Source of the DNA: Catenovulum agarivorans DS-2
GTDB lineage: Bacteria > Pseudomonadota > Gammaproteobacteria > Enterobacterales > Alteromonadaceae
Assembly: GCF_000568405.1 (NCBI RefSeq)
Contig: NZ_ARZY01000031.1
Coordinates: forward strand, 1 to 55,046
DNA: 55,046 nt
Direction: 5' to 3'
Made by a program: the position numbers and the translations under genes. Position 1 is the first letter of the stretch; the number at the start of each line of letters is the position of its first letter. The notes beneath the pieces were generated by a model. It searched no databases. It saw only the letters and a list, made by a program, of their open reading frames with translations, and had not been told where the DNA came from. Shown one piece after another: positions 4,997 through 55,046 of the stretch.

Positions 4997-5938
4997 TTAC
5001 AATAAACTAAAAGCTTGTTGGCTGAACAAAACCCGCTCTATTGCGGTGCGGGTTTGTTGCTGTTTTTCGATCATTTTTAATCTTGGTTTCAAACCACAGC
5101 CGTTAGCGATTTGAATAGACAACCCAGGTCTTGCATTTAACTCAAGCAGTAGTGGGCCTTTTTCTACATCTAATACGATATCCGCACCTAGATAACCTAA
5201 CTGAGTTTTTTCATAACACTTAGCGGCGAGTTCAAGCATGTCTGTCCAATTGGGTACTTTGAGTTCGCTAAGCTTTTGTTGGGTGTCAGGGTGATACTCA
5301 ACTGGTTTGCCAAATTGCACCGCATGTAATGCCTGACCATTGGCTATATCTAGTCCAACGCCGACCGCGCCTTGGTGTAAATTTGCTTTGCCATCAGAAG
5401 CTTCGGTAGATAGGCGCATCATAGCCATCACTGGATAGCCTTTGAATATGATAATTCGAATATCAGGCACCCCTTCATAACTATAATCGCTAAACAGTTG
5501 ATCAAAGTTAATTAAGCGCTCAATAATGGCTTTGTCAACTTTGCCGCCTAAACTATACAAGCCTGCCAGAATGTTACTGCAGTGGTGTTGCAAATGTTCG
5601 ATATTCAGTTCACTGCCATTGGGTTTAGCAAAATTAGGGTTGGCATTGTTTTGAATTACTAATATACCTTTTCCACCACTACCTTGCGCTGGTTTAATGA
5701 CAAACCCGCCTGTGCTGGGTAATAAAGTCATCAAGTTATTGATCTGTGATTGGTGCTCTATTGTTGCGATTAATTCAGGTACATGGATATCAGAATTTTC
5801 CAATAAACGTTTAGTTGCCAGTTTATTGTCGACTAGTGGGTAGAGCTTACGCTCGTTGTAACGCGCAATATATTTTATATTGCGCTCATTCATACCTAAT
5901 ATGCCAAGGCTGGCTAATTTAAACGGATTTACCAGCAT
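4997..5938 (-). CDS. RimK-type ATP-grasp ligase (alpha-L-glutamate ligase-like)
   Basis: 313 residues with an ATP-grasp fold: a nucleotide-binding loop GFVIKPAQGSGGKGILV, a central beta segment with PDIRIIIFKG, the MMRLST stretch, and the metal-binding end LLELNARPGLSIQIANG. This matches the RimK-related 'alpha-L-glutamate ligase-like' family that always travels with a 7TM inactive-transglutaminase protein. The reaction is expected to be ATP-dependent carboxylate-amine ligation, but the substrate is not known from sequence. The start codon lies 20 bases inside the end of the upstream 7TM gene, so the two are translationally coupled. With the retropepsin-like lipoprotein it forms a three-gene operon. 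Confidence 0.85.
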   Translation of the reverse strand: MLVNPFKLASLGILGMNERNIKYIARYNERKLYPLVDNKLATKRLLENSDIHVPELIATIEHQSQINNLMTLLPSTGGFVIKPAQGSGGKGILVIQNNANPNFAKPNGSELNIEHLQHHCSNILAGLYSLGGKVDKAIIERLINFDQLFSDYSYEGVPDIRIIIFKGYPVMAMMRLSTEASDGKANLHQGAVGVGLDIANGQALHAVQFGKPVEYHPDTQQKLSELKVPNWTDMLELAAKCYEKTQLGYLGADIVLDVEKGPLLLELNARPGLSIQIANGCGLKPRLKMIEKQQQTRTAIERVLFSQQAFSLL

Positions 5939-32108: not shown

Positions 32109-32184
32109 TGGCGTCCCATAGGGGATTCGAACCCCTGTTACCGCCGTGAAAGGGCGGTGTCCTAGGCCTCTAGACGAATGGGAC
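32109..32184 (-). tRNA. tRNA-Glu(UUC), copy 5 of the array
   Basis: 76 bases including encoded CCA. Minus strand begins GTCCCATTCGTCTAGAGG, has anticodon loop CTTTCAC (anticodon UUC) and TTCGAAT T-loop. Last of five copies in transcription order. Confidence 0.97.
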
Positions 32185-32217
32185 GCATAGGAACTTGCGT
32201 GATTTATAAATTGTAAA

Positions 32218-32293
32218 TGGCGTCCCATAGGGGATTCGAACCCCTGTTACCGCCGTGAAAGGGCGGTGTCCTAGGCCTCTAGACGAATGGGAC
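32218..32293 (-). tRNA. tRNA-Glu(UUC), copy 4 of the array
   Basis: Same 76-base sequence as the neighbouring copy. The 33-base spacer after it is identical to the spacer between copies 3 and 4 (repeat unit 109 bases). Confidence 0.97.
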
Positions 32294-32326
32294 GCATAGG
32301 AACTTGCGTGATTTATAAATTGTAAA

Positions 32327-32402
32327 TGGCGTCCCATAGGGGATTCGAACCCCTGTTACCGCCGTGAAAGGGCGGTGTCCTAGGCCTCTAGACGAATGGG
32401 AC
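32327..32402 (-). tRNA. tRNA-Glu(UUC), copy 3 of the array
   Basis: Same 76-base tRNA. The upstream side changes to the second spacer type (27 bases), which marks the border between two duplication blocks. Confidence 0.97.
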
Positions 32403-32429
32403 ACTTAGGAACTTACAAATCAAAAATAT

Positions 32430-32505
32430 TGGCGTCCCATAGGGGATTCGAACCCCTGTTACCGCCGTGAAAGGGCGGTGTCCTAGGCCTCTAGACGAAT
32501 GGGAC
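32430..32505 (-). tRNA. tRNA-Glu(UUC), copy 2 of the array
   Basis: Same 76-base tRNA; repeat unit 103 bases with the shorter spacer type on both sides. Confidence 0.97.
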
Positions 32506-32532
32506 ACTTAGGAACTTACAAATCAAAAATAT

Positions 32533-32608
32533 TGGCGTCCCATAGGGGATTCGAACCCCTGTTACCGCCGTGAAAGGGCGGTGTCCTAGGCCTCTAGACG
32601 AATGGGAC
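32533..32608 (-). tRNA. tRNA-Glu(UUC), copy 1 of the array
   Basis: Same 76-base tRNA, nearest to the promoter after tRNA-Ala. Confidence 0.97.
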
Positions 32609-32669
32609 GCTGAGTATTTCAGAACAACTAAAAGTTGTTAGGCCATTACATTGAAGTTAAGCAAAAACT

Positions 32670-32745
32670 TGGTGGAGCTAAGCGGGATCGAACCGCTGAC
32701 CTCAACACTGCCAGTGTTGCGCTCTCCCAGCTGAGCTATAGCCCC
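32670..32745 (-). tRNA. tRNA-Ala(GGC)
   Basis: 76 bases with encoded CCA. Minus strand starts GGGGCTATAGCTCAGCTGGG; the anticodon stem-loop ACTGGCAGT gives anticodon GGC. It is first in the operon and followed by five tRNA-Glu. In E. coli two tRNA-Ala(GGC) genes also neighbour gltX. Confidence 0.97.
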
Positions 32746-32796
32746 TCTTGCTTAGGTAATCCTTTGTAGAAAGGCTTTCCCTTCAACGCGGGGCGC

Positions 32797-32825
32797 ATTC
32801 TATGCACCCCGACCTATCATGTCAA
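32797..32825 (-). promoter_or_regulatory. Promoter of the tRNA-Ala/Glu operon
   Basis: On the minus strand TTGACA (32820-32825), 17-base spacer, TAGAAT (32797-32802), then a GC-rich discriminator GCGCCCC, as in stringently controlled stable-RNA promoters. It lies just after the gltX stop codon. Confidence 0.85.
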
Positions 32826-32832
32826 CAAAAAA

Positions 32833-34242
32833 TTATGACTTTTCTCGATTATTTATAAACTCAAAGGCTAAGTCGATTCGATTGATTATTTTTTGTCTAT
32901 CTATTAACGCTAAAGTAACATCTAGTGAAGGTGAGTTACCACCACCTGTTGACGCCACTCGCAGTGGCATACCTACTTTGCCCATGCCGACAGATAATTC
33001 TTCGGCAGTTTGGTTGATTGCTGCTTGAATTGCTTCTGGTGTCCAATCAGCCAAGTCAGCTAATTTTTGTTGAACTAACTTTAATGGCTCTTTGGCAACT
33101 GGACGTAAGTGTTTTTTCGCCGCATTTGCATCAAACTCGGTAAAGTCTTCAAAGAAGTAACGCGAAATTTCAACCAATTCTTTTAAGGTTTTCACTCGAT
33201 CGGCTTGAATTTTTATCACCTCAGCTAACGATGGGCCATTCGACACATCTAATTTTTGTTCTGCAAGATGCCATTGCAAATGATCAATGACCTCTTCAAC
33301 AGGAGAGCTTTTTATGTAATGCTGATTTAACCAAATTAATTTTTCTGTATTGAATGCTGAAGCCGCTTTATTAATTGCTTCTAACGAAAATAACTCGATC
33401 ATCTCTTCTAAACTAAAAATTTCTTGGTCGCCATGTGACCATCCCAATCGAACCAAGTAGTTTAATAGTGCTTGCGGTAAAAAACCGTCGTCACGATATT
33501 GCATTACGCTTACTGCGCCATGGCGTTTAGAGAGTTTTTTGCCATCGTCACCTAATATCATCGAAACATGGGCATAAGTTGGAATAGGTGCACCTAAGGC
33601 TTGCAAGATATTAATTTGGCGTGGAGTATTGTTAATATGGTCTTCGCCACGAACAACATGGCTGATACCCATGTCCCAATCATCAACAACCACACAGAAG
33701 TTATATGTTGGTGAGCCATCTGAACGTTGAATGATTAAATCATCGAGTTCGCTGTTGGCCACTTCAATACGGCCGCGGATTTTATCGTCAAAAACAACGC
33801 TGCCAGTTTGTGGGTTTTTAAAACGGATGACAAAAGGTTGATCACTTGGATGATCGTCTCTATCACGCCATAAACCGTTGTATCTTGGTTTTTCACCCGC
33901 AGCCATTTGTTTTTCGCGCATCTCTTCCAATTCTTCAGGTGTGCAAAAACATTTGTAAGCTTTGCCTTCGTCTAATAACTGCTGAATTAAACTTTTGTAA
34001 CGATCAAAACGTTTAGTTTGATAATAAGGGCCTTCATTCCATTCTAAGCCTAACCAGTTCATTCCATCCATAATCGCGTCTATCGCTTGCTGAGTAGAAC
34101 GTTCTAAATCAGTATCTTCGATGCGTAATACAAATTCACCCTGATTTGCTTTTGCAAATAACCAAGAATAAAGGGCAGTTCGAGCGCCACCTACATGGAG
34201 GTAGCCAGTTGGGCTAGGTGCAAAACGTGTTTTAATCGTCAT
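32833..34242 (-). CDS. gltX: Glutamyl-tRNA synthetase
   Basis: 469 residues from the ATG at 34242, which has GGAAG upstream and begins [13 protein letters not shown] as in other GltX proteins; the frame extends further upstream but without homology. HIGH-type motif in [19 protein letters not shown] as the KMSKS equivalent, and a Cys pair in KCFCTPEE near residue 100. It charges tRNA-Glu, five copies of which lie immediately downstream under a separate promoter. Confidence 0.97.
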
Positions 34243-34425
34243 TTTTGTCTTCCACAAACTTGAAGTTAATGTAATGAATAAAGAGAAAGCAGGCATTTTA
34301 GCAATGCTAAAGGCACTTGCCTAATTAGATTTGCGCTTCAGTGCATTTTATTTGGCTATATTTTGGCGCTTTCGCTGGTTTTTTGTTCGTTTGATATAAA
34401 AGCGCAATTTTTTTTAGATTTAGTG

Positions 34426-34453
34426 TTGACAGAATAGCGCGCATCCCTATAAT
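34426..34453 (+). promoter_or_regulatory. Promoter of the tRNA-Val operon
   Basis: TTGACA (34426-34431), 16-base spacer, TATAAT (34448-34453) and GC-rich discriminator GCGCACC. Both hexamers match consensus. The first tRNA-Val starts 44 bases later. Confidence 0.9.
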
Positions 34454-34497
34454 GCGCACCACACACAGCGACATGGTGTAGCCATGAAGCAAAAGAT

Positions 34498-34573
34498 GGA
34501 CGTTTAGCTCAGTTGGGAGAGCATCGCCCTTACAAGGCGAGGGTCACTGGTTCAAGTCCAGTAACGTCCACCA
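34498..34573 (+). tRNA. tRNA-Val(UAC), copy 1
   Basis: 76 bases with encoded CCA. Starts GGACGTTTAGCTCAGTTGGG; anticodon loop CTTACAA gives UAC. Confidence 0.97.
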
Positions 34574-34603
34574 TCTCTTTCTTGTGTGTTCTGTCTTTAA
34601 GAT

Positions 34604-34679
34604 GGACGTTTAGCTCAGTTGGGAGAGCATCGCCCTTACAAGGCGAGGGTCACTGGTTCAAGTCCAGTAACGTCCACCA
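34604..34679 (+). tRNA. tRNA-Val(UAC), copy 2
   Basis: Identical to copy 1; repeat unit 106 bases, and the 30-base spacers between the three copies are identical. Confidence 0.97.
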
Positions 34680-34709
34680 TCTCTTTCTTGTGTGTTCTGT
34701 CTTTAAGAT

Positions 34710-34785
34710 GGACGTTTAGCTCAGTTGGGAGAGCATCGCCCTTACAAGGCGAGGGTCACTGGTTCAAGTCCAGTAACGTCCACCA
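34710..34785 (+). tRNA. tRNA-Val(UAC), copy 3
   Basis: Identical to copies 1 and 2. In E. coli three tRNA-Val(UAC) genes (valU, valX, valY) lie beside gltX in the same divergent arrangement. Confidence 0.97.
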
Positions 34786-40562: not shown

Positions 40563-40706
40563 CGAGATATTGATGCTACCTAAATTTAGCTAAGTATCCT
40601 TACCACAACCGCCACTCATAGCGCATTTTAGAAGCACGCAACCTTGGCGGTTGTTCTTTATAACAAACGATGTACACTCGCAGAAAGATTTAATTTAGGC
40701 TACCTG

Positions 40707-41355: not shown

Positions 41356-41676
41356 ATGATTCATTACAAACAAGGTAATATATTGCACGAGCAAACCCAA
41401 GCTATCGTTAATGCTGTGAATACGGTTGGCGTAATGGGAAAGGGCTTAGCTTTACAATTCAAAAAAGCATTTCCAGATAATTTTAAAGTGTACAAAAAAG
41501 CTTGTGATGAAAAATTGCTAACAACTGGGCAGGTATTGTCTGTCGAACTAAACAGTATTAATCCCCCGCATTATATTATTAACTTTCCAACTAAAGCACA
41601 TTGGAAATCGCCATCCCAAATTGGTTATATTACATCTGGATTAGAAGCTTTAAAGCAGGAAGTTAAGCGGCTTTGA
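41356..41676 (+). CDS. Truncated macrodomain protein (DarG N-terminus-like)
   Basis: 106 residues that follow the DarG/macro pattern: YKQGNILHEQTQAIVNAVN, NTVGVMGKGLALQFKKAFP, INFPTKAHWKSPSQI. DarG macrodomains remove ADP-ribose that the toxin DarT places on DNA. A full macrodomain is about 150 residues; this one stops after LEALKQEVKRL, before the segment with the usual second ligand-binding loop. No DarT toxin is next to it. The last bases TTGA overlap the start of the XRE gene, so the two are coupled. Confidence 0.7.
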   Translation: MIHYKQGNILHEQTQAIVNAVNTVGVMGKGLALQFKKAFPDNFKVYKKACDEKLLTTGQVLSVELNSINPPHYIINFPTKAHWKSPSQIGYITSGLEALKQEVKRL

Positions 41677-42074
41677 AAAATGGATTTACTGTTGAAGAAA
41701 TTGACGGTGAAGAATATAGCAGTATAGGTGACATCAATGGTTTGCATAAAACTATAGCTGCTGTGAATGTTGATAGTAGAATGCCATTAACCGGTGAAGA
41801 GTTTAAATTTTTACGAGTTGAATTGAATGCTTCGCAAAAATTACTTGGTAGCCGTTTTGGGGTTTCAGAGCAAACTATTGCCCGCTACGAAAAAGGTCAA
41901 TCAGAAATTCCTAGAACGACTGATGCTGCACTACGATCTCTATACATGGAAAGCTTGGATAAAAACAATCCAGTGAGTTATTTTCTAGATTTATTGTCTG
42001 ATGCAGAAGCGCAAGACGCAGCTAAAGATATTTTACTAGAAGAGATTCATGAGCATTGGGAAATTGCGGTTTGA
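41673..42074 (+). CDS. XRE-type helix-turn-helix protein (antitoxin-like)
   Basis: 133 residues from a TTG start that overlaps the macrodomain stop (TTGA). The HTH is at about 45-100: EEFKFLRVELNASQKLLGSRF, then VSEQTIARYEKGQSEIP. The N-terminal 35 residues resemble the leader seen in MqsA/HigA-like antitoxins but have no zinc finger. It is a likely autoregulatory DNA-binding protein. The next ATG would cut into the HTH domain, so TTG is preferred. Confidence 0.7.
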   Translation: MKNGFTVEEIDGEEYSSIGDINGLHKTIAAVNVDSRMPLTGEEFKFLRVELNASQKLLGSRFGVSEQTIARYEKGQSEIPRTTDAALRSLYMESLDKNNPVSYFLDLLSDAEAQDAAKDILLEEIHEHWEIAV

Positions 42075-42385
42075 TATTAAAAATTGCTTATTGAGCCCCA
42101 ACATTTTTGTCGGCTCTTTAATTTGTGCTGTGATGTATCTGGCTAATACAGACCCCACTGAATAACGCGGCCTTAACTCATCTCTGATTTTTTAGTTCGA
42201 ATGGCCACTTTTATCTGCTGACAAAGATTTAGTTGATGTGATTTTTACACTTCGTTTATTGAATTAATTTTTATTGATGTTTTTCTTTGCGTCGCAACAT
42301 TTCAAGTGATTTGATGTCGTATTTTGGGTGTTGATGTATGTCGTATTTTTGCGTACATTTTATACGGTGAACATAGGGGCTATTG
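42075..42385 (+). other. Intergenic region with 12-bp direct repeat
   Basis: About 310 bases with no credible gene. Near its right end ATGTCGTATTTT occurs twice (42314-42325 and 42338-42349, 24 bases apart). CGTAT at 42343 is also complementary to ATACG at 42362-42366. These lie just upstream of the AbiEi-type gene and are candidate operator sites for it. Confidence 0.45.
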
Positions 42386-42802
42386 ATGACTATTCAAAGC
42401 AGAATTCAAATGAGAGTTAAGCGCTCGAAGCGTTCTGTTTTCCTGCGTTCTGATTTTGAGGACATTGCTGGTTATGATCAAGTGGGCCGGGTGCTGAGAA
42501 AGCTTGCTCTTGATGGCTTACTGATGAAGATTGGTTATGGCTTGTATGTTCGAGCTAGAAAAAATCGAATTACCGGAAAGTTGATGCCTGATAATGATGG
42601 TGGCGCAGATGGCGTATTGATTGAAGCCATGGAGCGATTAGGTGTCGATTATAAATTTGATGATCTATCAAACATGAACTTAACAGGTCAAAGCACACAA
42701 ATTCCAGCAAGCGTTAAAATCACCCCAAAAGATCCTCGCTTCACTCGTAAAATTACTGTAGGCAAGCAGTGTGTCAATACTGACATGCCTGAAGTCGATT
42801 GA
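42386..42802 (+). CDS. AbiEi-type antitoxin / DUF6088 protein without partner
   Basis: 138 residues from the ATG at 42386 (AGGGG 7 bases upstream; a TTG one codon earlier is not needed). The N-terminal 60 residues (RVKRSKRSVFLRSDFEDI, GRVLRKLALDGLLMKIGYGLYVRA) form the winged helix of AbiEi/DUF6088 proteins, which repress their own operon and counter the nucleotidyltransferase toxin AbiEii. No AbiEii gene follows: 42803-42934 is empty. It is an orphan. Confidence 0.65.
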   Translation: MTIQSRIQMRVKRSKRSVFLRSDFEDIAGYDQVGRVLRKLALDGLLMKIGYGLYVRARKNRITGKLMPDNDGGADGVLIEAMERLGVDYKFDDLSNMNLTGQSTQIPASVKITPKDPRFTRKITVGKQCVNTDMPEVD

Positions 42803-42934
42803 GTAATATTTAATCCTAACCAGATTCGTTGCTGCCATTTTAAATAAAAAGAACACTAAAATATTTGCCTTGGTGTATCTTTGTGGATACACTTTGTTAT
42901 AGTTATAGATGATGCAACGTAAATATTTTGGTAT

Positions 42935-43234
42935 ATGGAATACATTGTTAAGAGACTGGACGAGTTTAACGACTGGCTGAACGATATAAAAGACAGTAAA
43001 ACTCGGCTGCGTTTAGCTCGCCGATTAGACAAAGCAGGCCGAGGGTTATTGGGCGATGTTAAGCCTGTTGGTGATGATGTTTGGGAAATGCGCGAATTTT
43101 TCGGCCCAGGTTGGCGTATGTATTATGTGATTAGGGGCGAGTATATTGTAATTATGCTGGGCGGTGGTGATAAATCGAGCCAGACTAAAGATATTGAAAT
43201 TGCTCTGAAAAGAGCGGAAAGCCTTGGGGATTAG
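42935..43234 (+). CDS. RelE/ParE-family toxin, HI1419 type
   Basis: 99 residues: DEFNDWLNDIKDSKTRLRLARRLDKAGRG, VWEMREFFGPGWRMYYVIRG, IVIMLGGGDKSSQTKDIE. This is the HI1419/HigB-like addiction-module toxin, normal length. It probably cleaves mRNA at the ribosome. Toxin-first order; the antitoxin begins at the base after its stop codon. Confidence 0.88.
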   Translation: MEYIVKRLDEFNDWLNDIKDSKTRLRLARRLDKAGRGLLGDVKPVGDDVWEMREFFGPGWRMYYVIRGEYIVIMLGGGDKSSQTKDIEIALKRAESLGD

Positions 43235-43549
43235 ATGATGACTCAAAAAATTAATGTAAGTAGTTTGCCAGAGTTTGATTTGTCTGAGCAGTTGAGAACC
43301 GATGACGATATTGCTGAATATTTGACTATGGTATTGGAAGAGGGGGATACGGACGAATTGATTCGTGCCATTGGTTATATTGCTAAAGCGCGTGGTATGT
43401 CGCAAATTGCTCAACAAACTGGTTTAGGGCGTGAAAGCTTATATAAAAGCTTTAGAGCTGGAGCTAAACCGCAGGCGGAAACTATTTTTAAAGTGCTCAA
43501 AGCAATTAATATTGACTTGCGTGCCGTAAGCCATGGCAGTATTGCGTAG
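43235..43549 (+). CDS. Addiction-module antidote, HI1420 type
   Basis: 104 residues with a HigA-like helix-turn-helix: DIAEYLTMVLEEGD, AKARGMSQIAQQTGLGRESLYKSF, FKVLKAINIDLR. It neutralises the toxin at 42935-43234 and usually represses the operon. The start is ATG-ATG directly after the toxin stop. Confidence 0.88.
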   Translation: MMTQKINVSSLPEFDLSEQLRTDDDIAEYLTMVLEEGDTDELIRAIGYIAKARGMSQIAQQTGLGRESLYKSFRAGAKPQAETIFKVLKAINIDLRAVSHGSIA

Positions 43550-47169: not shown

Positions 47170-47370
47170 ATGACTGATACCGTTCTGACTATTAAAGAAG
47201 TAGCTGAGTATTTGAAGGTAAATGAGAGAACTGTTTACCGGCTAGCAGCGGCACATAAAATTCCTGCTTTTAAAGTTGGAAATGCTTGGCGCTTTAAACA
47301 ATCCGATCTCGAAGAATGGATCAGTACGCAAGCAGCTCAAGGAAAAGGGGGGTTGGATGGTAATAACTGA
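47170..47370 (+). CDS. Excisionase-family helix-turn-helix protein
   Basis: 66 residues from the ATG at 47170 (a GTG two codons earlier is possible). LTIKEVAEYLKVNERTVYRLAAAHKIPAFKVGNAWRFKQSDLEEWI is the MerR-like excisionase (DNA_bind helix-turn-helix) domain. It leads the defence operon and overlaps the helicase start by 14 bases, so it is probably its transcriptional controller. Confidence 0.88.
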   Translation: MTDTVLTIKEVAEYLKVNERTVYRLAAAHKIPAFKVGNAWRFKQSDLEEWISTQAAQGKGGLDGNN

Positions 47371-50251
47371 TTATCAAGCAAAATACTTTGCGCAGGAATT
47401 GACCATTCGCCACGCTGAAAATGGCGTTGATAAATTATCTCAATCCCTTTTTGATGCCAGTGTTGACCTCAATCCGCACCAAATCCATGCGGCACTTTTT
47501 GCGCTCAACAATCCGTTAAGTAAAGGTGTTGTACTCGCTGATGAAGTGGGCTTAGGGAAAACCATTGAAGCAGGCTTAGTACTGTCACAGTATTGGGCAG
47601 AGCGTAAACGCCGCATATTAATCATCTGCCCAGCGTCACTTCGACGCCAGTGGGCACAGGAATTGGGCGATAAGTTTAACTTACCGACGCAAGTGCTTGA
47701 TGCAAAAACGTGGCGCAATAGTGTTAACAATGGTCAAACTAACCCGCTAGCGAATCACTGCGTTTCTATTATGTCCTATCACTATGCTGCGCGAATGGAA
47801 ACACAGCTAATGCTGGAGCCATGGGATATAGTCGTCATCGACGAAGCGCACAAACTACGTAATGCGCACCGTAGCAGCAACAAAATGGGTCAAACGCTAC
47901 GCCGAGCATTAGATGGCAGTAAAAAGCTATTACTTACTGCAACGCCCTTACAAAATTCGCTTATGGAATTGTATGGACTTTCAACCATCATCGACGATCA
48001 AATCTTCGGCGATGAGCGAAGCTTCAAACAACACTTTGTCAATAACGAAAGTGCACTAGGGCATCTAAAGAAACGACTTACCGGGTTTATTCAGCGAACC
48101 TTGCGAAAAGATGTACTCGAATACGTCCGCTATACCCAACGTCAAACACTCACCGTACCGTTTACACCCTCTAGTGCTGAAATGGCGCTTTACGAAGGTA
48201 TTAGTGCCTTACTGGAAAAGGACGAGAGCTATGCACTACCAAAGAGCCAACGTCATTTAACCGGCCTTATACTGAGAAAGCTATTAGCATCTAGTTCGCA
48301 CGCAGTGCTTAACACACTCGAAACCATAAAGCGCCGATTGGTTGACTTGAAAGTACAGGCTAAATCGGATCTCGATATTATCGGTGAGCTTGTTGAGAGT
48401 GATGATTTAGGAGAAGAGTACAGCGAGTATGTAGAAGAAACACAAAGCAATACCCCTGAGAGTGATATTGACTTTGAGTTACTCAATGCTGAAATAGCCG
48501 AGCTTGAGCATTATATCGAGCAGGCTAAATCCATTACCACCGACAGTAAAACCCAAGCCTTGCTAACGGCGCTTAATCAAGGGTTTGCCAAAATGGAGGA
48601 AATGGGGGCGCCACGTAAAGTCATTATTTTTACCGAATCGAAGCGCACGCAAGAATACCTAGCTCGTTTCCTCGAGGCTAATGGCTTTGCTGATAAATTA
48701 GTCACCTTTAGTGGCAGCAATAACCATCCAGAAGCAACCAAAGTTTATCAGCAGTGGTTAGCTGAAAACCAAGGTAGTGATAAGGTGAGTGGTTCACCGC
48801 AAATTGACCGCCGTACTGCCCTAATTGATTACTTCCGCCATCATGCCGAAGTTATGATCGCAACCGAAGCGGCTGCAGAAGGGGTTAACTTACAGTTCTG
48901 TTCGTTACTGATTAACTATGACTTACCATGGAACCCACAACGGGTAGAGCAACGTATTGGCCGTTGTCACCGCTATGGACAGCAATTTGATGTTGTGGTG
49001 ATCAACTTCCTCAACGAAGCCAACAAAGCCGATCAGCGTGTTTTAGAGTTACTGACTGAAAAATTCCATCTGTTCGATGGCGTGTTTGGTGCATCGGACG
49101 ATGTGCTAGGCAGCATTGAATCTGGTATTGATTTTGAAAAACGCATCCAAAATATATACGAGACTTGTCGGCAACCGGCGGAAATAGAAGCAGCTTTTGA
49201 TCAATTGCAAAAAGAGCTAGAAGCCGACATCAACCAAAAAATGCGCGAGACCCAGCAACTGCTGCTGGAAAATTTCGATGAAGATATTCATGACTTGCTG
49301 AAAATTCAGCTTGATGCCGCGCAGCAACGCCTCGATAAAGTAGGTCGTTGGTTTTGGCAACTCAGTACGCATGAGCTTGCAGCTATCGCAGATATCGACC
49401 CAAGCAATCATAGTTTTACGCTTAATCAGAACATAAATCAGGCTCCTGCTGGTATCTACCAACTTGTACGCCGAGGACAGCAAAGCGGCAGTATTGAAAC
49501 CGGTAAACTAGCCAATGCCCATGTGTATCGTATCACCCACCCGCTTGGTGAATGGGTGATCAGCAACGCGCTTCAACGTGAATTGCCTACTGCTAGCGTA
49601 ATTTTTGATTACAGCAACCACCAAACAAAAATCAGTATGCTAGAACCCTTAGTTGGTTCGTCAGGTGTACTAAGCCTACAAAAATTCAGTGTCGAATCAT
49701 TAGAACGTAGCGAAGACCATTTACTGTTCGCCGCGCAAGACGACCATGGCAACCTGCTACCAAGTGAAGTCGTGCAAAAGCTGATGCAGCTTAATGCCTG
49801 TGTGCAAAGTGAAGTAAGTGAGCAAGAACTTGCCGCCTTATATCCTGGCTATCAAAATGCGCTGCAGCATGCGTTACAGCAGTCGAGACTAGGCATCGAA
49901 AAGCAAGTTAACGATCGTAATCTCAGCTTCTTCGAGCAAGAGGTAAACAAGTTAGATTCTTGGGCAGACGACTTAAAAGAAGGGCTTGAACAATCTATAA
50001 AAGAGCTTGATAAGCAAATCAAGCAAGTACGCCGCGAAGCCAAAATAGCCCCAACCCTGGAAGAGAAACTTGCCCTGCAAAAACAGCAGCGCCAGTTAGA
50101 AAGTCAGCGCAATAAAAGCCGCCGTGAACTGTTTGATAAACAAGATGAAGTGGACGAAAAGCGCGAACAGCTGATTGAAAGCTTAGAAGGCAAACTGAAT
50201 AAAAAAACCAGCCAAGAGACCCTATTTACCATTGGGTGGACGGTTCAATGA
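47357..50251 (+). CDS. SNF2-type DEAD/DEAH helicase
   Basis: 964 residues from the ATG at 47357 (G-rich AAAGGGGGG upstream; a longer frame to 47276 runs inside the HTH gene). Walker A DEVGLGKTIEAG (GLGKT 65-69), DEAH at 162-165 in VVIDEAHKLRN, motif III LLLTATPLQN, and motifs V/VI in ATEAAAEGVNLQ and QRIGRCHRYGQ. The C-terminal 130 residues are a charged coiled coil. This is a Swi2/Snf2 translocase of the kind found with type III-like methylases in defence operons and distantly like DISARM DrmD. It probably moves along DNA. Confidence 0.9.
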   Translation: MVITDYQAKYFAQELTIRHAENGVDKLSQSLFDASVDLNPHQIHAALFALNNPLSKGVVLADEVGLGKTIEAGLVLSQYWAERKRRILIICPASLRRQWAQELGDKFNLPTQVLDAKTWRNSVNNGQTNPLANHCVSIMSYHYAARMETQLMLEPWDIVVIDEAHKLRNAHRSSNKMGQTLRRALDGSKKLLLTATPLQNSLMELYGLSTIIDDQIFGDERSFKQHFVNNESALGHLKKRLTGFIQRTLRKDVLEYVRYTQRQTLTVPFTPSSAEMALYEGISALLEKDESYALPKSQRHLTGLILRKLLASSSHAVLNTLETIKRRLVDLKVQAKSDLDIIGELVESDDLGEEYSEYVEETQSNTPESDIDFELLNAEIAELEHYIEQAKSITTDSKTQALLTALNQGFAKMEEMGAPRKVIIFTESKRTQEYLARFLEANGFADKLVTFSGSNNHPEATKVYQQWLAENQGSDKVSGSPQIDRRTALIDYFRHHAEVMIATEAAAEGVNLQFCSLLINYDLPWNPQRVEQRIGRCHRYGQQFDVVVINFLNEANKADQRVLELLTEKFHLFDGVFGASDDVLGSIESGIDFEKRIQNIYETCRQPAEIEAAFDQLQKELEADINQKMRETQQLLLENFDEDIHDLLKIQLDAAQQRLDKVGRWFWQLSTHELAAIADIDPSNHSFTLNQNINQAPAGIYQLVRRGQQSGSIETGKLANAHVYRITHPLGEWVISNALQRELPTASVIFDYSNHQTKISMLEPLVGSSGVLSLQKFSVESLERSEDHLLFAAQDDHGNLLPSEVVQKLMQLNACVQSEVSEQELAALYPGYQNALQHALQQSRLGIEKQVNDRNLSFFEQEVNKLDSWADDLKEGLEQSIKELDKQIKQVRREAKIAPTLEEKLALQKQQRQLESQRNKSRRELFDKQDEVDEKREQLIESLEGKLNKKTSQETLFTIGWTVQ

Positions 50252-50275
50252 TGACAATCAATTTCAACGCCAGCA

Positions 50276-50303
50276 TTGACTTTTTTCAGTTTGGGGCTAT
50301 GAT
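50276..50303 (+). promoter_or_regulatory. Promoter inside the defence operon, before abi_2
   Basis: TTGACT (50276-50281), 16-base spacer, TATGAT (50298-50303). It begins 24 bases after the helicase stop and would start a leader of about 100 bases before the Abi_2 gene. Confidence 0.65.
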
Positions 50304-50309
50304 CACTGC

Positions 50310-50408
50310 AACAACACCCCTCCCGCTACCCGTCAGATCAGCGCCCTGTGAGGGGTTACTCGTTTCTGGGGCCCGCAAAATTCGATCTTCTGTTACATGG
50401 GAGGTCAA
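50310..50408 (+). ncRNA. Candidate structured leader RNA (abiF-type)
   Basis: The roughly 100-base leader before the Abi_2 gene has no reading frame but can fold. ACCCCTC (50316-50322) pairs with GAGGGGT (50350-50356), and AGATC (50335-50339), inside that loop, pairs with GATCT (50384-50388), which would give an H-type pseudoknot. An 'abiF RNA' motif upstream of Abi_2 genes is known; I cannot test whether this fits its covariance model. Confidence 0.4.
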
Positions 50409-51338
50409 ATGAGCCGCAAAACAGCCCCTAAAGTCGCCTTTACCAAGCCCCCTACAAGCTTTAGCGATCAAGTACGCTTGTTGCAACAACGTGGCCTAGT
50501 GATCAGTGATGTCCCCAAAGCCGAGTTTTATCTGGCACAGCTCAACTACTATCGTTTTGCGGCTTATTGTTTGCCCTATGAGCAAGATCACGCCAGTCAT
50601 GCGTTTATCGCAGGCACCCAGTTTGAACAAATCCTAAACCTATATGTGTTCGATCGTGAACTACGTTTGTTAGTGCTAGATGCCATCGAGCGTTTTGAGG
50701 TGTCATTGCGCACACAAATTGCGTATCAGTTGAGCCAAAAATACCAAACGGCGCACCCTCATTTAAAACCAGAGCTTTTTGGTGACTTATTAGAATACGC
50801 CAGCAGCCTTGGCAAACTCACGGGTGAGGTAAAGCGCAGTCGCGAAGAGTTTATTAAACACCTTACGCAAAAATACCAAGAGCCACTACCGCCTATTTGG
50901 GCCTGTGTTGAGCTGTTAACCATGGGGCAACTTTCCCGTTGGTACAGCAATATCAAGCTGCGTGCCGACCGCCAAGTAATAAGTAAAAGCTACGGCCTAG
51001 ATGAAAAAACCCTGACCTCCTTCTGTGAACATTTGTCGCTAGTACGCAATTTAAGCGCCCATCATTCTAGGCTATGGAACCGTGATTTTATCAAAACCAC
51101 CGTACTACCACGCCATGGTGAATCGGCACTGATCCAAAGCTTGCAAAACCTGCCCGATAGTGACCGGCGTTTACGAAAAATTTATAACACCTTGGTGATG
51201 CTGGGCTACCTCATGGATGTGATCAGTGGTGAACATCACTGGAAGCAACGACTCACCCAATTGATTAACCATCACCAAATAGACAATAGCCGCATGGGCT
51301 TTCCAGCCGACTGGCAAGCGCGGCCAATTTGGCAATAA
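50409..51338 (+). CDS. Abi_2 (AbiD/AbiF-like) abortive-infection protein, HEPN type
   Basis: 309 residues from the ATG at 50409, which has GGAGGT directly upstream; an ATG at 50397 has none. [19 protein letters not shown], then [13 protein letters not shown] and [24 protein letters not shown] are the Abi_2 signature. [13 protein letters not shown] near 213-225 contains R213-x4-H218, the HEPN RNase motif. The protein probably cleaves RNA on phage infection. It has its own promoter and leader inside the operon; AIPR begins 17 bases after its stop. Confidence 0.88.
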
Positions 51339-51355
51339 AAATAAGGACAACTCAC

Positions 51356-53191
51356 TTGGCAGCATTACAACCACAATTTCTTGCACCCTTAAAAGAACTG
51401 CTTCAGCAGCGGTTTGTGCCGCATTTACCGCCATTGCTTGGGCAAGGTGGACGAGAAGACTTACCTGAAAAACAAATTGCACGTGCGTTCAGCGCTTATG
51501 TACTGCAAACACATTTTGGCATTGATGCAAAATTAGCGGCACAGTCAGTGTTAGACGACTACAACGATCAAGGCATAGATGCAATTTACTTTGATGAAAA
51601 CACACGCATCTTATTTATTGTGCAATCAAAGTTTAAATCACGTGAGCAATTTCTCCTGCCTGAAGCGCAGTCCCTGATGACAGGGGTTGAGTTATTGTTA
51701 GATAAGAACTTTCAAGCCTTCAACCAAAACTTCAATAATCGCCGTGACTATATAGAAAACGCGCTAGATGAGTGCAATAGCATACAAGTGCTGATTGCAT
51801 ACACTGGGAGTGGTATAGCGGGTACAGCAAACAACGAAATGCAACGCAAGCTTGCTGCATTAGTTGAGCGCGGTGAAGCGCAATTAAAAGTGCAGGTTGA
51901 AGAGTTTTCAGCACAGGATGTTGAAGAAGCTTTGCGTGCAGAGCAAGCTATCTCCGAAGTAAATGAAAAAGTAGCTGTTTATAAATGCACAACGACCAAT
52001 GAGCCCAGAAATGCTGTATTTGGTGTAGTCAAAGTGAATGATCTAGTCAGTTTACACAATAAGCATGGCAAAGCACTTTACGAGAAAAATATTCGCTATT
52101 TCATTGGTGCTGGGCGTCGTGGGGTCAACAGCGCAATCAAGCAAACACTACTGGCTAACCCGCAAGATTTTTTCTTTTTAAACAATGGAATCACAATGGT
52201 GGGAAACCATGTAGAACCCAAGCGCCTGCAGAACAAAGGTGGCCCACGAAACATTCAGGTACTAGGCCTATCCGTCGTTAACGGTGCGCAAACCATCGCT
52301 AGTGCTGCGCAGTTTATGCGTGAAAATCCAGATGCCGATATCAGCCAAGCCCAAGTGATGGTGACGATTATCAACACGGGTAACGATGCATTCCACAAAC
52401 AAGTAACCAAAGCGCGTAACCTGCAAAACCCAGTAGATTTAGCCAACTTTGCCGCACTGGACGATACCCAAGAACGCTTGCGCCAAGAGATGAAAATGTT
52501 TGGTGTGGAATATCTCTACCGCCCACAACAAATCGCAGCAGTGGGTATTCGTAGCATTACTATCGACACATTGGCAAAGGCATTGGCCTGTATGCAAGGT
52601 GATGTACGTGTGCCTTATCAGCTAAAGGCAGAGCCTGGCAAATTTACTAACCAAGAAAGTACCGAATACCAAGCCATTTTTAGTGCAGATTTACAAGGTG
52701 CCGTCGCCATTAACGCGGTGAACTGCTATTTGGCGATACAAGGCTTATGCACTGCCGCAGAGCGCAGTAACCCAAGCCCAGAAAAACTGGTCTATCGCCA
52801 TTTTACCTACTGCATAACTACGCTAGTAATGGCGCAGTTTAAAGGCGCTATTACTGCCCCAGAAATTACCGAGCAAGCTGAATTTGAAGGCTTAATCAGC
52901 CGCACCTTTGATGAACTGCGACAGCAATTTTTTGATAGTTTTACGGCATTAGCATTGGGCAGTGCGCCACACGCGTATTTTAAGCGCTTGGGCGATACCG
53001 CACGTTTAATGCAAACGGTGTGGATCAGCCATTTAAACTTGGCAGAAAGTCCGGCAGTTGTTGCAAAACAAGAACGCCTTCAGGCTAACGACCCACATAA
53101 CCAGAATTTATTTAGTTACTTAGCCGAGCAAGCACAACGCCGACAAGGGCAAAACGCTCAAGCGGCCAATCGGCAAGCACAGCCAGCCTAG
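51356..53191 (+). CDS. AIPR-family protein with nuclease-like N-terminus
   Basis: 611 residues from the TTG at 51356 (AAGGA upstream; a TTG at 51329 overlaps the Abi_2 end and adds a tail without homology). The AIPR core is seen in FFFLNNGITMVGN and VLGLSVVNGAQTIASA. The N-terminal part has GIDAIYFD (Asp75) followed by IVQSKFK (Gln90-Ser-Lys92), the D...QxK form of PD-(D/E)xK nucleases as in Mrr proteins. AIPR proteins occur in phage-resistance loci. It likely cuts DNA, but activity is inferred. Confidence 0.85.
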   Translation: MAALQPQFLAPLKELLQQRFVPHLPPLLGQGGREDLPEKQIARAFSAYVLQTHFGIDAKLAAQSVLDDYNDQGIDAIYFDENTRILFIVQSKFKSREQFLLPEAQSLMTGVELLLDKNFQAFNQNFNNRRDYIENALDECNSIQVLIAYTGSGIAGTANNEMQRKLAALVERGEAQLKVQVEEFSAQDVEEALRAEQAISEVNEKVAVYKCTTTNEPRNAVFGVVKVNDLVSLHNKHGKALYEKNIRYFIGAGRRGVNSAIKQTLLANPQDFFFLNNGITMVGNHVEPKRLQNKGGPRNIQVLGLSVVNGAQTIASAAQFMRENPDADISQAQVMVTIINTGNDAFHKQVTKARNLQNPVDLANFAALDDTQERLRQEMKMFGVEYLYRPQQIAAVGIRSITIDTLAKALACMQGDVRVPYQLKAEPGKFTNQESTEYQAIFSADLQGAVAINAVNCYLAIQGLCTAAERSNPSPEKLVYRHFTYCITTLVMAQFKGAITAPEITEQAEFEGLISRTFDELRQQFFDSFTALALGSAPHAYFKRLGDTARLMQTVWISHLNLAESPAVVAKQERLQANDPHNQNLFSYLAEQAQRRQGQNAQAANRQAQPA

Positions 53192-53245
53192 CTATTGCGG
53201 TGGGACAAAGACGCCAAGTAACGAACACAATATAAGAGCACAGAA

Positions 53246-54952
53246 ATGATGAGCAAAACCAAATTAGAACTGACCTGGATAGGCAAAAACGAGCGCAAAA
53301 AGTTAGAGCCGCGCATTTTGTTAGAAGACCCGAGCAAGTCTTATCACGCCAGCCAAAAAGTCACGGACAACGACATTTTTGATAATAAGCTGATTTTTGG
53401 CGATAACCTGTTAGCGTTGAAGGCGTTAGAGCAAGAATATGCGGGCAAAGTGAAGTGTGTTTACATAGACCCACCATTCAATACCGGAAGTGCTTTTGAG
53501 CACTATGATGATGGTCTGGAGCATTCCATTTGGCTGGGCTTAATGAGGGATAGGTTAGAAATAATTCGTAATCTACTAAGTGATGATGGAGTAATATTCG
53601 TTCACTTAGATGACTGCGAAATGGCTTATTTAAAAGTTTTGATGGACGAGATTTTTGGTCGTGCAAATCAGTTAAATACCATATCGATGACCACAAATGA
53701 CCCTTCGGGCTTTAAGGCAACAGGAGCCACAGTTTTCTCCACAGTAAACTTTTTGCTTGTATACGCAAAAGATCGCACCCAGAAACCGCTTAACAAAATC
53801 TATATACCTAAAGGATATGATACGGGATATAACAAATATCTATTAAACCCGGATGACCATTATAAAAGTTGGACGTGGTGCGGTATTGCCGATGCGTTTG
53901 CAAAGGCCAATGGCTATAAAGATACAAAAGAAGCCAAGAAAAAACTGCCTGATACATTTGATGATGAATTAGCACAATTCGCAATTGATAATGCAGAACG
54001 TGTATTTCAATCCGTTGCAATTGGTGGTGGTGCTAAAATAAAGAGAAAAGAAACTATCGAGAAGTCAAAGACAGATAGGGATAAGGTTTATGTACATCCA
54101 AATGAGGATGTCGAAGGCTTTTATATCGCAAATGGTAGGCAAATGGTCTTTTACTCCAATAGGCTTTTGGAAATTGACGGTGAGATGCAACCTGCTGAAC
54201 TAATAACTGATGTTTGGACCGACATTAGTTGGAATGGAATAGCAAATGAAGGTGGCGTTAGTTTCAAAAATGGAAAAAAACCCGAAGCGCTTTTGAAGCG
54301 GATTTTCGAAATGTGTACGCGAGAAGGCGATTTAGTCTTTGATTCATTCGGTGGTTCGGGAACTACTGCTGCTGTAGCTCACAAGATGAAAAGACGTTGG
54401 ATCTCGGTCGAGCTAGGTGAACATTGTCATACCCATATTATCCCGCGCTTACAAAAAGTGATTGATGGTAACGATCAAGGCGGCATTTCTAAAGCTGTAA
54501 ACTGGCAAGGCGGAGGCGGTTTCCGTTATTACAAACTTGCGCCGTCATTAATTGTTAAAGATAAGTTCGGCTTGGAAGTGATCAACAAAGAATACAACCC
54601 AGAAATGCTTGCTGAAGCCGTTTGCAAGCTAGAAGGCTTTACCTATGCGCCATCAGAAGTGGATTGGTGGGATCATGGCTACTCAACTGAGACTGACCAT
54701 ATTTACGTGACCACACAAAGCCTGTCTGTTGAAAAGTTAGAAGCACTGTCAGAAGATGTGGGCAGTGATCGAACCCTATTGGTGATGTGTGGCGCATTTC
54801 GCTGCGAAGCAGGCCGCTTTGCCAATTTAACCTTGAAAAAACTGCCAAAAGCCATTTTAGATAAGTGCCAATTTGGTCAGGACGATTATTCGTTAAATGT
54901 GGCTAATTTAACAGACGATGCGTCTGTCGATGACGATGCAGTGCAAGATTAA
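53246..54952 (+). CDS. Type III-like DNA adenine methyltransferase
   Basis: 568 residues, beta-class order: motif IV DPPFNTG (Asp75-Phe78) before motif I FDSFGGSGTTAAVA (Phe368-Gly372). The N-terminal KLIFGDNLLALKALE and the final AdoMet-site segment RRWISVELGEHC fit Mod subunits (N6-adenine). It modifies host DNA and would protect it from the operon's nuclease activity. It follows AIPR by 54 bases and precedes another gene by 21. Confidence 0.9.
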   Translation: MMSKTKLELTWIGKNERKKLEPRILLEDPSKSYHASQKVTDNDIFDNKLIFGDNLLALKALEQEYAGKVKCVYIDPPFNTGSAFEHYDDGLEHSIWLGLMRDRLEIIRNLLSDDGVIFVHLDDCEMAYLKVLMDEIFGRANQLNTISMTTNDPSGFKATGATVFSTVNFLLVYAKDRTQKPLNKIYIPKGYDTGYNKYLLNPDDHYKSWTWCGIADAFAKANGYKDTKEAKKKLPDTFDDELAQFAIDNAERVFQSVAIGGGAKIKRKETIEKSKTDRDKVYVHPNEDVEGFYIANGRQMVFYSNRLLEIDGEMQPAELITDVWTDISWNGIANEGGVSFKNGKKPEALLKRIFEMCTREGDLVFDSFGGSGTTAAVAHKMKRRWISVELGEHCHTHIIPRLQKVIDGNDQGGISKAVNWQGGGGFRYYKLAPSLIVKDKFGLEVINKEYNPEMLAEAVCKLEGFTYAPSEVDWWDHGYSTETDHIYVTTQSLSVEKLEALSEDVGSDRTLLVMCGAFRCEAGRFANLTLKKLPKAILDKCQFGQDDYSLNVANLTDDASVDDDAVQD

Positions 54953-54973
54953 CGGTTAATAAGGATAATTATA

Positions 54974-55046
54974 ATGACCATGGATTTATCAAGCTTAAAA
55001 CCCGAGCAATTACGTGCCATTAACAACGTTATCGGCCGGGTAAGTT
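54974..55046 (+). CDS. Start of next defence-operon gene (cut by window end)
   Basis: ATG at 54974 with AAGGAT about 8 bases upstream. Only 24 residues are visible (LKPEQLRAINNVIG...). The position after a Mod-type methylase is that of a restriction or accessory subunit; the visible part is too short to name. Confidence 0.6.
   Translation, partial: MTMDLSSLKPEQLRAINNVIGRVS

What the first reader, a model, noticed from the sequence alone, without database searches (positions are those of the whole stretch)
47170..55046. Composite defence operon: HTH, SNF2 helicase, Abi_2, AIPR, type III-like methylase
The order HTH-SNF2-[Abi_2]-[AIPR]-Mod-(next gene) combines a methylase/helicase backbone with two proteins usually found in separate abortive-infection or AIPR loci. 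I do not recognise this set as BREX, DISARM or a plain type III system. All genes are on one strand and tightly spaced except a promoter-bearing gap before Abi_2. This suggests layered defence: methylation-based self marking, a DNA translocase, a DNA nuclease-like AIPR and an RNA-targeting HEPN fallback.
Basis: partly seen in the sequence, partly recalled or inferred. Interest (0 to 1): 0.85.

Follow-up and report, generated by a model that had tools for sequence, protein, structure and literature searches.

The report
Restriction island with embedded RNA-guarded toxin
A mobile bacterial anti-virus island carries, inside its DNA-cutting system, what looks like a self-contained toxin held in check by a small RNA, plus a second suspected DNA cutter; each part is of a known kind, but the small RNA hidden in this place is a useful new clue to how such islands combine defences.

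Summary
The five genes are real and in the order stated. A sixth, the restriction subunit Res, is cut by the contig end and resumes on contig C15 of the same genome. HTH–SNF2–Mod–Res is a type III-like restriction-modification backbone; 45 of 73 such loci carry extra ORFs between SNF2 and Mod, several from known defence or toxin families. The order SNF2–Abi_2–AIPR–Mod–Res recurs in Nitrincola tapanii, a Methyloprofundus MAG contig and, by annotation names, 19 of 5,426 E. coli genomes: not a private insertion. The "gap" before Abi_2 holds a conserved promoter and a structured RNA (50310-50364), a diverged relative of the abiF RNA, the RNA antitoxin of AbiF HEPN toxins. A model trained without backbone loci finds it in the window and in 11 of 11 other held-out Abi_2 loci, 9 of them backbone loci; in 50 loci without Abi_2 the only match is one at 18.1 bits. 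Abi_2 is thus most likely an RNA-restrained toxin cassette embedded in the operon. AIPR as DNA nuclease rests on a motif only. Cooperation between cargo and restriction is untested. New variant of a known kind.

The parts
47170..47370 (+). HTH_17 / MAD1-like small DNA-binding protein, probable operon regulator; overlaps the next gene by 14 bases
   Evidence: Pfam HTH_17 75 bits; NCBIfam NF047737 83.4 bits, cut-off 80; start by analogy with the E. coli annotation
47357..50251 (+). SNF2-type helicase, DrmD_b-like
   Evidence: GLGKT, DEAH, TATP and RIGR motifs present
50276..50303 (+). promoter-like site of the RNA-Abi_2 cassette (TTGACT-16-TATGAT)
   Evidence: a -10 box at the same distance before the RNA in 27 of 31 Abi_2 loci, shuffled mean 7.2, maximum 14
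50310..50364 (+). abiF-like structured RNA, putative RNA antitoxin; outer stem 50316-50322 with 50351-50357, inner CGC/GCG stem
   Evidence: covariance model R1, 33.3 bits, E 3.8e-6; held-out loci; covariation; not found by Rfam RF03085 itself
50409..51338 (+). Abi_2 / AbiD/F HEPN RNase-type toxin (alternative start 50397)
   Evidence: Pfam Abi_2 180 bits; 8vz6 Abi family protein E 4.3e-51, R213/H218 of the protein from 50409 aligned to R210/H215
51329..53191 (+). AIPR protein with a D...QxK nuclease-like N-terminal motif (start uncertain, 51329-51356)
   Evidence: Pfam AIPR 132 bits; D84, Q99 and K101 invariant in 7 of 7 relatives
53246..54952 (+). type III-like DNA methylase Mod
   Evidence: N6_N4_Mtase 139.5 bits, MTase_III 935 bits; DPPF and FGGSG motifs
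54974..55046 (+). start of Res (DEAD/DEAH helicase-nuclease), cut by the contig end; resumes at G000:C15:3
   Evidence: E. coli homologue ResIII 73.7 bits, REase_III 634 bits

Best explanation
A mobile type III-like restriction-modification island (HTH–SNF2–Mod–Res) whose SNF2–Mod slot has received two cargo items. The first is an abiF-type toxin-antitoxin cassette: own promoter, structured RNA antitoxin, Abi_2 HEPN RNase. The second is an AIPR protein, a probable DNA nuclease. Proposed working: Mod marks self DNA, and Res with the SNF2 translocase attacks unmarked DNA. The RNA binds and silences Abi_2; when infection shuts off or degrades host RNA, the RNA falls and freed Abi_2 cleaves RNA and stops the cell. 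Shown: gene order, intact motifs (Res read on the E. coli homologue), recurrence, variable slot cargo, the conserved RNA and promoter, and that the RNA goes with Abi_2. Inferred from studied AbiF systems: RNA binding, neutralisation and RNase action. Guesses: the trigger, the role of AIPR, and any cooperation between cargo and restriction enzyme.
For: Slot: of 105 loci annotated 91 have a strong SNF2, 73 also Mod, 60 Mod and Res; 45 of the 73 carry at least one same-strand ORF of 140 aa or more between SNF2 and Mod; cargo examined matches AAA+DUF4276 (HEC-01), IetAS, Fic, AbiEi, AAA_13 and AlbA_2. RNA: 7 of 10 pairs change on both sides, slid controls 0-3; held-out detection; -10 box in 27 of 31. 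Toxin homology. RNA antitoxin function in a relative: PMC12373285 (abstract and passages). Cargo comes and goes: the AIPR label needs at least 5 changes on the SNF2 tree and 6 on the Res tree. Mobility: SNF2 gene at 97% DNA identity in 29 E. coli genomes, on Salmonella plasmids, with integrase genes or remnants near by in three E. coli loci.
Against: No experiment. Rfam's own model does not detect the RNA, and the gap folds no better than shuffles (z +1.39). In the outer stem the 5' arm was picked by eye and the 3' arm by pairing, so its pairing percentage is biased; the inner stem was not chosen that way. Model R1 also gives 30.6 bits to a terminator-like hairpin at 40601 whose inner stem is broken, so score alone does not prove identity. 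AIPR has no significant fold match. Loss or splitting of AIPR and Abi_2 on a kept backbone speaks against an obligate joint mechanism.
Confidence: 0.62

Rival explanations
1. One integrated machine: SNF2, Abi_2, AIPR, Mod and Res form a single system in which the cargo is activated by the restriction apparatus (for example when it is blocked), as a guard.
For: Fixed position between SNF2 and Mod; in 369 genomes of the class only two have a close AIPR, the window itself and G334, both in the slot; same order kept in Nitrincola at 57-75% protein identity; precedent for suicide genes linked to type I and III systems in PMC3506569 (passages).
Against: Most backbone loci carry other cargo or none; AIPR comes and goes on the SNF2 and Res trees; Abi_2 brings its own promoter and RNA; AIPR or Abi_2 seems broken or lost in 10 of 29 E. 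coli matches (by names; three of the ten read).
Confidence: 0.2
2. Passive hitch-hiking: the RNA-toxin cassette is an addiction element that only stabilises the mobile island and has no antiviral role.
For: Toxin-antitoxin layout; mobile setting on plasmids and islands; in L025, L181 and L182 the RNA is kept while Abi_2 is split into two frames, as expected when a toxin decays and its antitoxin stays.
Against: AbiD/F relatives are phage-resistance genes (PMC12373285 passages); slot neighbours in other loci belong to known or candidate antiviral families.
Confidence: 0.17
3. The gap RNA is only a leader or terminator hairpin of the Abi_2 mRNA.
For: The outer stem is a GC-rich hairpin followed by T-rich bases; model R1 also picks up a terminator-like hairpin at 40601.
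Against: Inner stem and flanking letters conserved and covarying in 29 sequences; -10 box at a fixed distance; no match at E <= 1 in 49 of 50 loci without Abi_2, the other 18.1 bits.
Confidence: 0.1

Closest known systems
AbiF toxin with abiF RNA (RF03085; RCd22-AbiF of Clostridioides difficile; PbAbiF, 8vz6)
   Same: Same protein family with the catalytic R and H aligned; RNA just upstream with its own promoter and the same two-stem plan
   Different: RNA has diverged beyond Rfam's model; one motif, where RCd22 has two; sits inside a restriction operon, where RCd22-AbiF sits in a prophage lysis module (passages)
Type III restriction-modification (Mod–Res)
   Same: Adjacent Mod and Res with intact motifs
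   Different: Preceded by HTH and a DrmD-like SNF2 helicase, with variable cargo between SNF2 and Mod and between Mod and Res
DISARM (DrmD)
   Same: SNF2 protein resembles DrmD_b
   Different: Below the DrmD cut-off; no DrmB or DrmC, and DrmA only as a helicase cross-match
Embedded defences (Hma-embedded and PDC candidates of Payne et al. 2024, seen only as cited in PMC12988326)
   Same: Cargo genes placed inside a larger immune operon; some of the same families (HEC-01, PDC-S02, PDC-S05) occur in relatives of this locus
   Different: Host operon is an SNF2–type III system; cargo here includes an RNA-bearing cassette
AIPR proteins of RM operons
   Same: AIPR in RM operons in print since 2008 (PMC2292703 legend) and linked to type III RM (PMC3506569 passages)
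   Different: N-terminus carries a D...QxK motif; the HEPN domain ascribed to AIPR in PMC3506569 is not seen in these 7 sequences (by eye)

Membership tests
Type III restriction-modification | amino-methylase Mod with DPPY-like and FxGxG motifs | tested here: met
   DPPF at 75, FGGSG at 368; MTase_III 935 bits
Type III restriction-modification | adjacent Res with helicase and PD-(D/E)XK nuclease | tested here: met
   Res starts at 54974, 21 bases after Mod, and continues on C15; motifs read on the E. coli homologue: GVGKT, DESH, PDF...ETK
Type III restriction-modification | methylation and restriction activity | not testable with these tools
   needs methylome and plating
DISARM | DrmA, DrmB and DrmC present | tested here: not met
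   None among 8 proteins scanned with PADLOC apart from a helicase cross-match to DrmA (best 25 rows shown); SNF2 697 bits against the DrmD_b cut-off of 950
BREX | PglZ and BrxC present | tested here: not met
   Not among the matches shown for the proteins scanned (10, 8); only helicase cross-matches to BrxH
MADS | Mad1 plus Mad2-Mad8 | tested here: not met
   Only the HTH passes (83.4 bits, cut-off 80); no Mad2-8 among the matches shown for the 8 proteins scanned
AbiF/Abi_2 toxin | Abi_2 domain with HEPN Rx4-6H | tested here: met
   180 bits; RNLSAH aligned to R210...H215 of 8vz6
abiF RNA RF03085 | Rfam gathering score | tested here: not met
   No match at gathering or at E <= 10
abiF RNA RF03085 | homology by place, structure and covariation | tested here: met
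   Rfam's model hits 7 of 29 other Abi_2 loci
AIPR | PF10592 domain | tested here: met
   132.4 bits, cut-off 25

The most novel reading that the evidence does not exclude
The SNF2–type III island is a general defence chassis with a recombination slot. In this lineage the slot has captured a Cas13-ancestor-type RNA-plus-HEPN unit that acts as a tripwire for the restriction enzyme: failure of restriction or loss of island transcription lowers the RNA and releases the RNase, with AIPR as a second nuclease arm.
Probability: 0.15. Interest if true: 0.8.

Novelty: new variant of a known kind. Interest (0 to 1): 0.52.

Why it matters
It shows that the abiF RNA family reaches further than Rfam's model sees, and that RNA–HEPN units of the kind held to be ancestral to Cas13 (PMC12373285) travel as cargo inside DNA restriction operons. 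It offers natural comparisons (same backbone with and without the cassette, with whole or split Abi_2) for the open question whether suicide genes embedded in restriction systems are functionally coupled to them or merely travel with them.

Tried and rejected
BREX, DISARM and MADS as names for the whole: rejected on missing defining genes. A private random insertion: rejected. Rfam on the gap: no abiF match. Folding the gap alone: no better than shuffles; only comparison between loci showed the RNA. AIPR against solved sequences: no match. AlphaFold model of AIPR (mean pLDDT 79.6, pTM 0.43): no PDB match at E <= 0.001; FokI (rank 3) and an arenavirus L N-terminal domain (rank 4) were too weak to use. 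HEPN in AIPR, as PMC3506569 says: not seen in 7 sequences (by eye). AIPR variants following the Mod specificity region: not seen; window and L024 share Mod (98%) but differ in AIPR (76%), and L024 and L105 are alike in AIPR but differ in Mod. One dedicated AIPR clade: the 8 slot AIPRs other than L068 formed one clade (95/99), but when two viral rows were added they fell into two groups at an open fork (87/86 and 80/84), so I withdraw that claim; all members of both groups lie in the slot, while slot member L068 pairs with L199, which shows no SNF2, Mod or Res in its 10.7 kb. The hit at 40601: taken as a terminator-like chance match.

Rows dropped: of 36 loci put to, 35 gave an upstream stretch (L042 lost) and 31 got an RNA candidate (L055, L057, L058 showed none; L091 repeats L039); L053 (weak stem) and L024 (repeats L029) were left out of the 29-row alignment; training kept 22. 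In one search the row L192, labelled non-slot, is the window itself; of the 11 other loci, L194 and L197 gave no AIPR ORF and were not in the trees; the 15 plasmid AIPR records were not put in the trees.
Full report
WHAT IS THERE. The window is one whole contig. From 47170 it carries, on one strand, a small HTH protein, a DrmD-like SNF2 helicase, an Abi_2 protein, an AIPR protein and a type III-like methylase. HTH and SNF2 overlap by 14 bases. The sixth gene begins at 54974 and is cut by the contig end; it is Res, and the rest of it opens contig C15 of the same genome, 92% identical to the E. coli homologue. Motifs of SNF2, Mod and the E. coli Res homologue are intact.

THE LOCUS RECURS. Of 369 genomes of the class, 22 have a strong SNF2 match, the window's own included; I fetched 20 of the 21 others. 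With four loci from E. coli and plasmids (L024-L027) and the window, 105 loci were annotated: 91 have a strong SNF2, 73 of these also Mod or a larger Mod type downstream, 60 Mod and Res. Hosts include Pseudomonadota, Bacteroidota, Bacillota, Planctomycetota and Actinomycetota. The order SNF2–Abi_2–AIPR–Mod–Res is in two E. coli loci (L024, L028), Nitrincola tapanii (L100) and a Methyloprofundus MAG contig (L105, SNF2 cut by the contig end), besides the window with its Res on C15. In E. coli, 29 of 5,426 genomes match the five-gene stretch and 24 cover at least 80% of it; by annotation names 19 carry both Abi and AIPR, 5 list no AIPR, 4 list an IS1 transposase, and 1 matches only HTH and SNF2. 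One of each of the last three kinds was read: L180 keeps only a 206-aa C-terminal piece of AIPR; L181 and L182 have IS1 behind SNF2, Abi_2 split into two frames and no AIPR; L182 also lacks Mod and Res. The one Salmonella plasmid locus read (L025; 15 Salmonella records hold a match to the SNF2 gene) has an IS256 transposase behind SNF2, a split Abi_2 and no AIPR, with Mod and Res kept.

A CARGO SLOT. Between SNF2 and Mod, 45 of 73 loci hold at least one same-strand ORF of 140 aa or more (in two of them, L079 and L102, only ORFs under 200 aa; in L025 one is the transposase), 17 of 73 hold one between Mod and Res, and 22 hold none in either place. Of 19 cargo proteins put to Pfam one (L069) had no match; the rest, with ten PADLOC scans, include AAA ATPase with DUF4276 (HEC-01), IetA and IetS, Fic, AbiEi, AAA_13, AlbA_2, RhuM (PDC-S05), YhcG (PDC-S02), zeta toxin-like, Bro-N and GmrSD-like proteins. 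AIPR lies between SNF2 and Mod without Abi_2 in L068, L110, L113, L118 (behind a 1,032-aa ATPase) and L121 and in viral contig L200. On the SNF2 tree (quick method) the AIPR label needs at least 5 changes, on the Res tree 6: AIPR is gained, lost or exchanged in place. Whether slot AIPRs are one clade is open: 95/99 for 8 of 9, not upheld with two viral rows added. The window's SNF2 falls in a group (99) whose other members, apart from its four close kin, have the larger Mod type, whereas its Res pairs with L065 of the Mod type (100/99): the locus looks like a recombinant with its junction in or near the slot.

THE HIDDEN RNA. PMC12373285 (abstract and passages) reports that an AbiF toxin is neutralised by an RNA encoded just upstream and carrying a conserved abiF motif, RF03085. 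Rfam's model finds that motif in 7 of 29 other Abi_2 loci but not in the window, L100 or L105. Yet the gap of the window and of other Abi_2 loci shows one plan: -10 box, AAC, a 7-pair stem, an inner 3-pair stem, a variable loop. In 29 sequences (28 distinct) 98.6% of cells pair and 7 of 10 pairs change on both sides; slid controls give 39-51% and 0-3. Caveat: the outer stem's arms were picked by eye and by pairing, the inner stem's were not. A covariance model from 22 sequences, with all SNF2-linked loci and two look-alikes (L030, L038) left out, finds the window RNA at 33.3 bits, E 3.8e-6, followed by a terminator-like hairpin at 40601 (30.6 bits, inner stem broken) and an 18.1-bit match at 5025. 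It hits 8 of 8 held-out Abi_2 loci (six backbone loci and two stand-alone ones) and 0 of 7 backbone loci without Abi_2. In 46 further loci (894 kb) it hits the three with Abi_2 (L180-L182), plus 18.1 bits in L126; 43 of the 46 lack Abi_2, 41 of those with SNF2. A -10 box lies at the same distance in 27 of 31 loci, against a shuffled mean of 7.2 and maximum of 14. The RNA is kept where Abi_2 is split (L025, L181, L182).

ABI_2 AND AIPR. Abi_2 matches the solved Abi family protein 8vz6 (E 4.3e-51), its R213 and H218 on R210 and H215; the paper aligns these two with R202 and H207 of its own AbiF, whose change abolished toxicity (passages). AIPR has D84, Q99 and K101 invariant in 7 relatives, a PD-(D/E)XK-like pattern (resemblance recalled), but no sequence or fold match to solved structures. 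Between window and E. coli L024, SNF2, Abi_2 and Mod are 96-98% identical, Res 92%, AIPR 76%, the difference lying in residues 41-320.

MECHANISM. Most likely a mobile type III-like RM island with an embedded RNA-restrained HEPN toxin and an AIPR. RNA control and RNase action are inferred from relatives. The trigger (loss of a labile RNA when infection stops transcription) is inferred from type III toxin-antitoxin systems in general (recalled). Cooperation with restriction is open: recurrence in one slot speaks for it, variable cargo and decay of cargo on a kept backbone speak against an obligate link.

NOVELTY. AIPR in RM operons is in print since 2008 (PMC2292703 legend; PMC3506569 passages), Abi2 embedded in R-M operons since 2013 (PMC3710099 table passage), a toxin-antitoxin inside a type I RM (PMC12255303 abstract), recurrent cargo gain by unrelated immune systems (PMC12799240 listing and passages), embedding as a discovery principle (Payne et al. 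2024, seen only as cited). I met no paper on this order or on an abiF RNA inside a restriction operon in the searches; I judged them by listings and a few passages, the library lacks most subscription papers and holds no bioRxiv section, and Zilberzwige-Tal et al. 2025 was seen only as cited. Hence a new variant of a known kind.

WHAT THE CHECK CHANGED.

Noticed in passing
window 41356-43549: A run of small ORFs left of the island: a Macro-domain protein (41356-41676), a DUF6088 protein (42383-42802) and two short ORFs (42935-43234, 43235-43549) that look like a toxin-antitoxin pair (recalled resemblance only).
   Followed up: partly
window 40601-40660: Terminator-like hairpin that model R1 scores at 30.6 bits although its inner stem is broken; the model partly sees GC-rich hairpins.
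   Followed up: partly
L198 2795-14465 (contig C15, right of Res): Further genes: four proteins without a Pfam match, an FtsZ/tubulin-like GTPase, a WYL regulator and a 1,504-aa protein with an HSP90-like ATPase domain; possibly another defence or plasmid-like module.
   Followed up: partly
Mod of the window (53246-54952) against L025 and L105: Mod is 90-100% identical near both ends but 20-58% identical in residues 121-360, although SNF2 is 97% identical in these loci: the specificity region is swapped.
   Followed up: partly
window 51449-52288 (AIPR residues 41-320): AIPR is a mosaic: 35-70% identical to the E. coli L024 copy in this part, 88-100% in the rest.
   Followed up: partly
L091 1313-6425: An Abi_2 with an abiF-type RNA sits directly before a Mod- and Res-like pair, with no SNF2 match in the 13 kb held: the cassette beside a methylase in another setting.
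   Followed up: no
window 32112-34782: Clusters of tRNA genes with identical scores on both strands, five on the minus and three on the plus strand.
   Followed up: no
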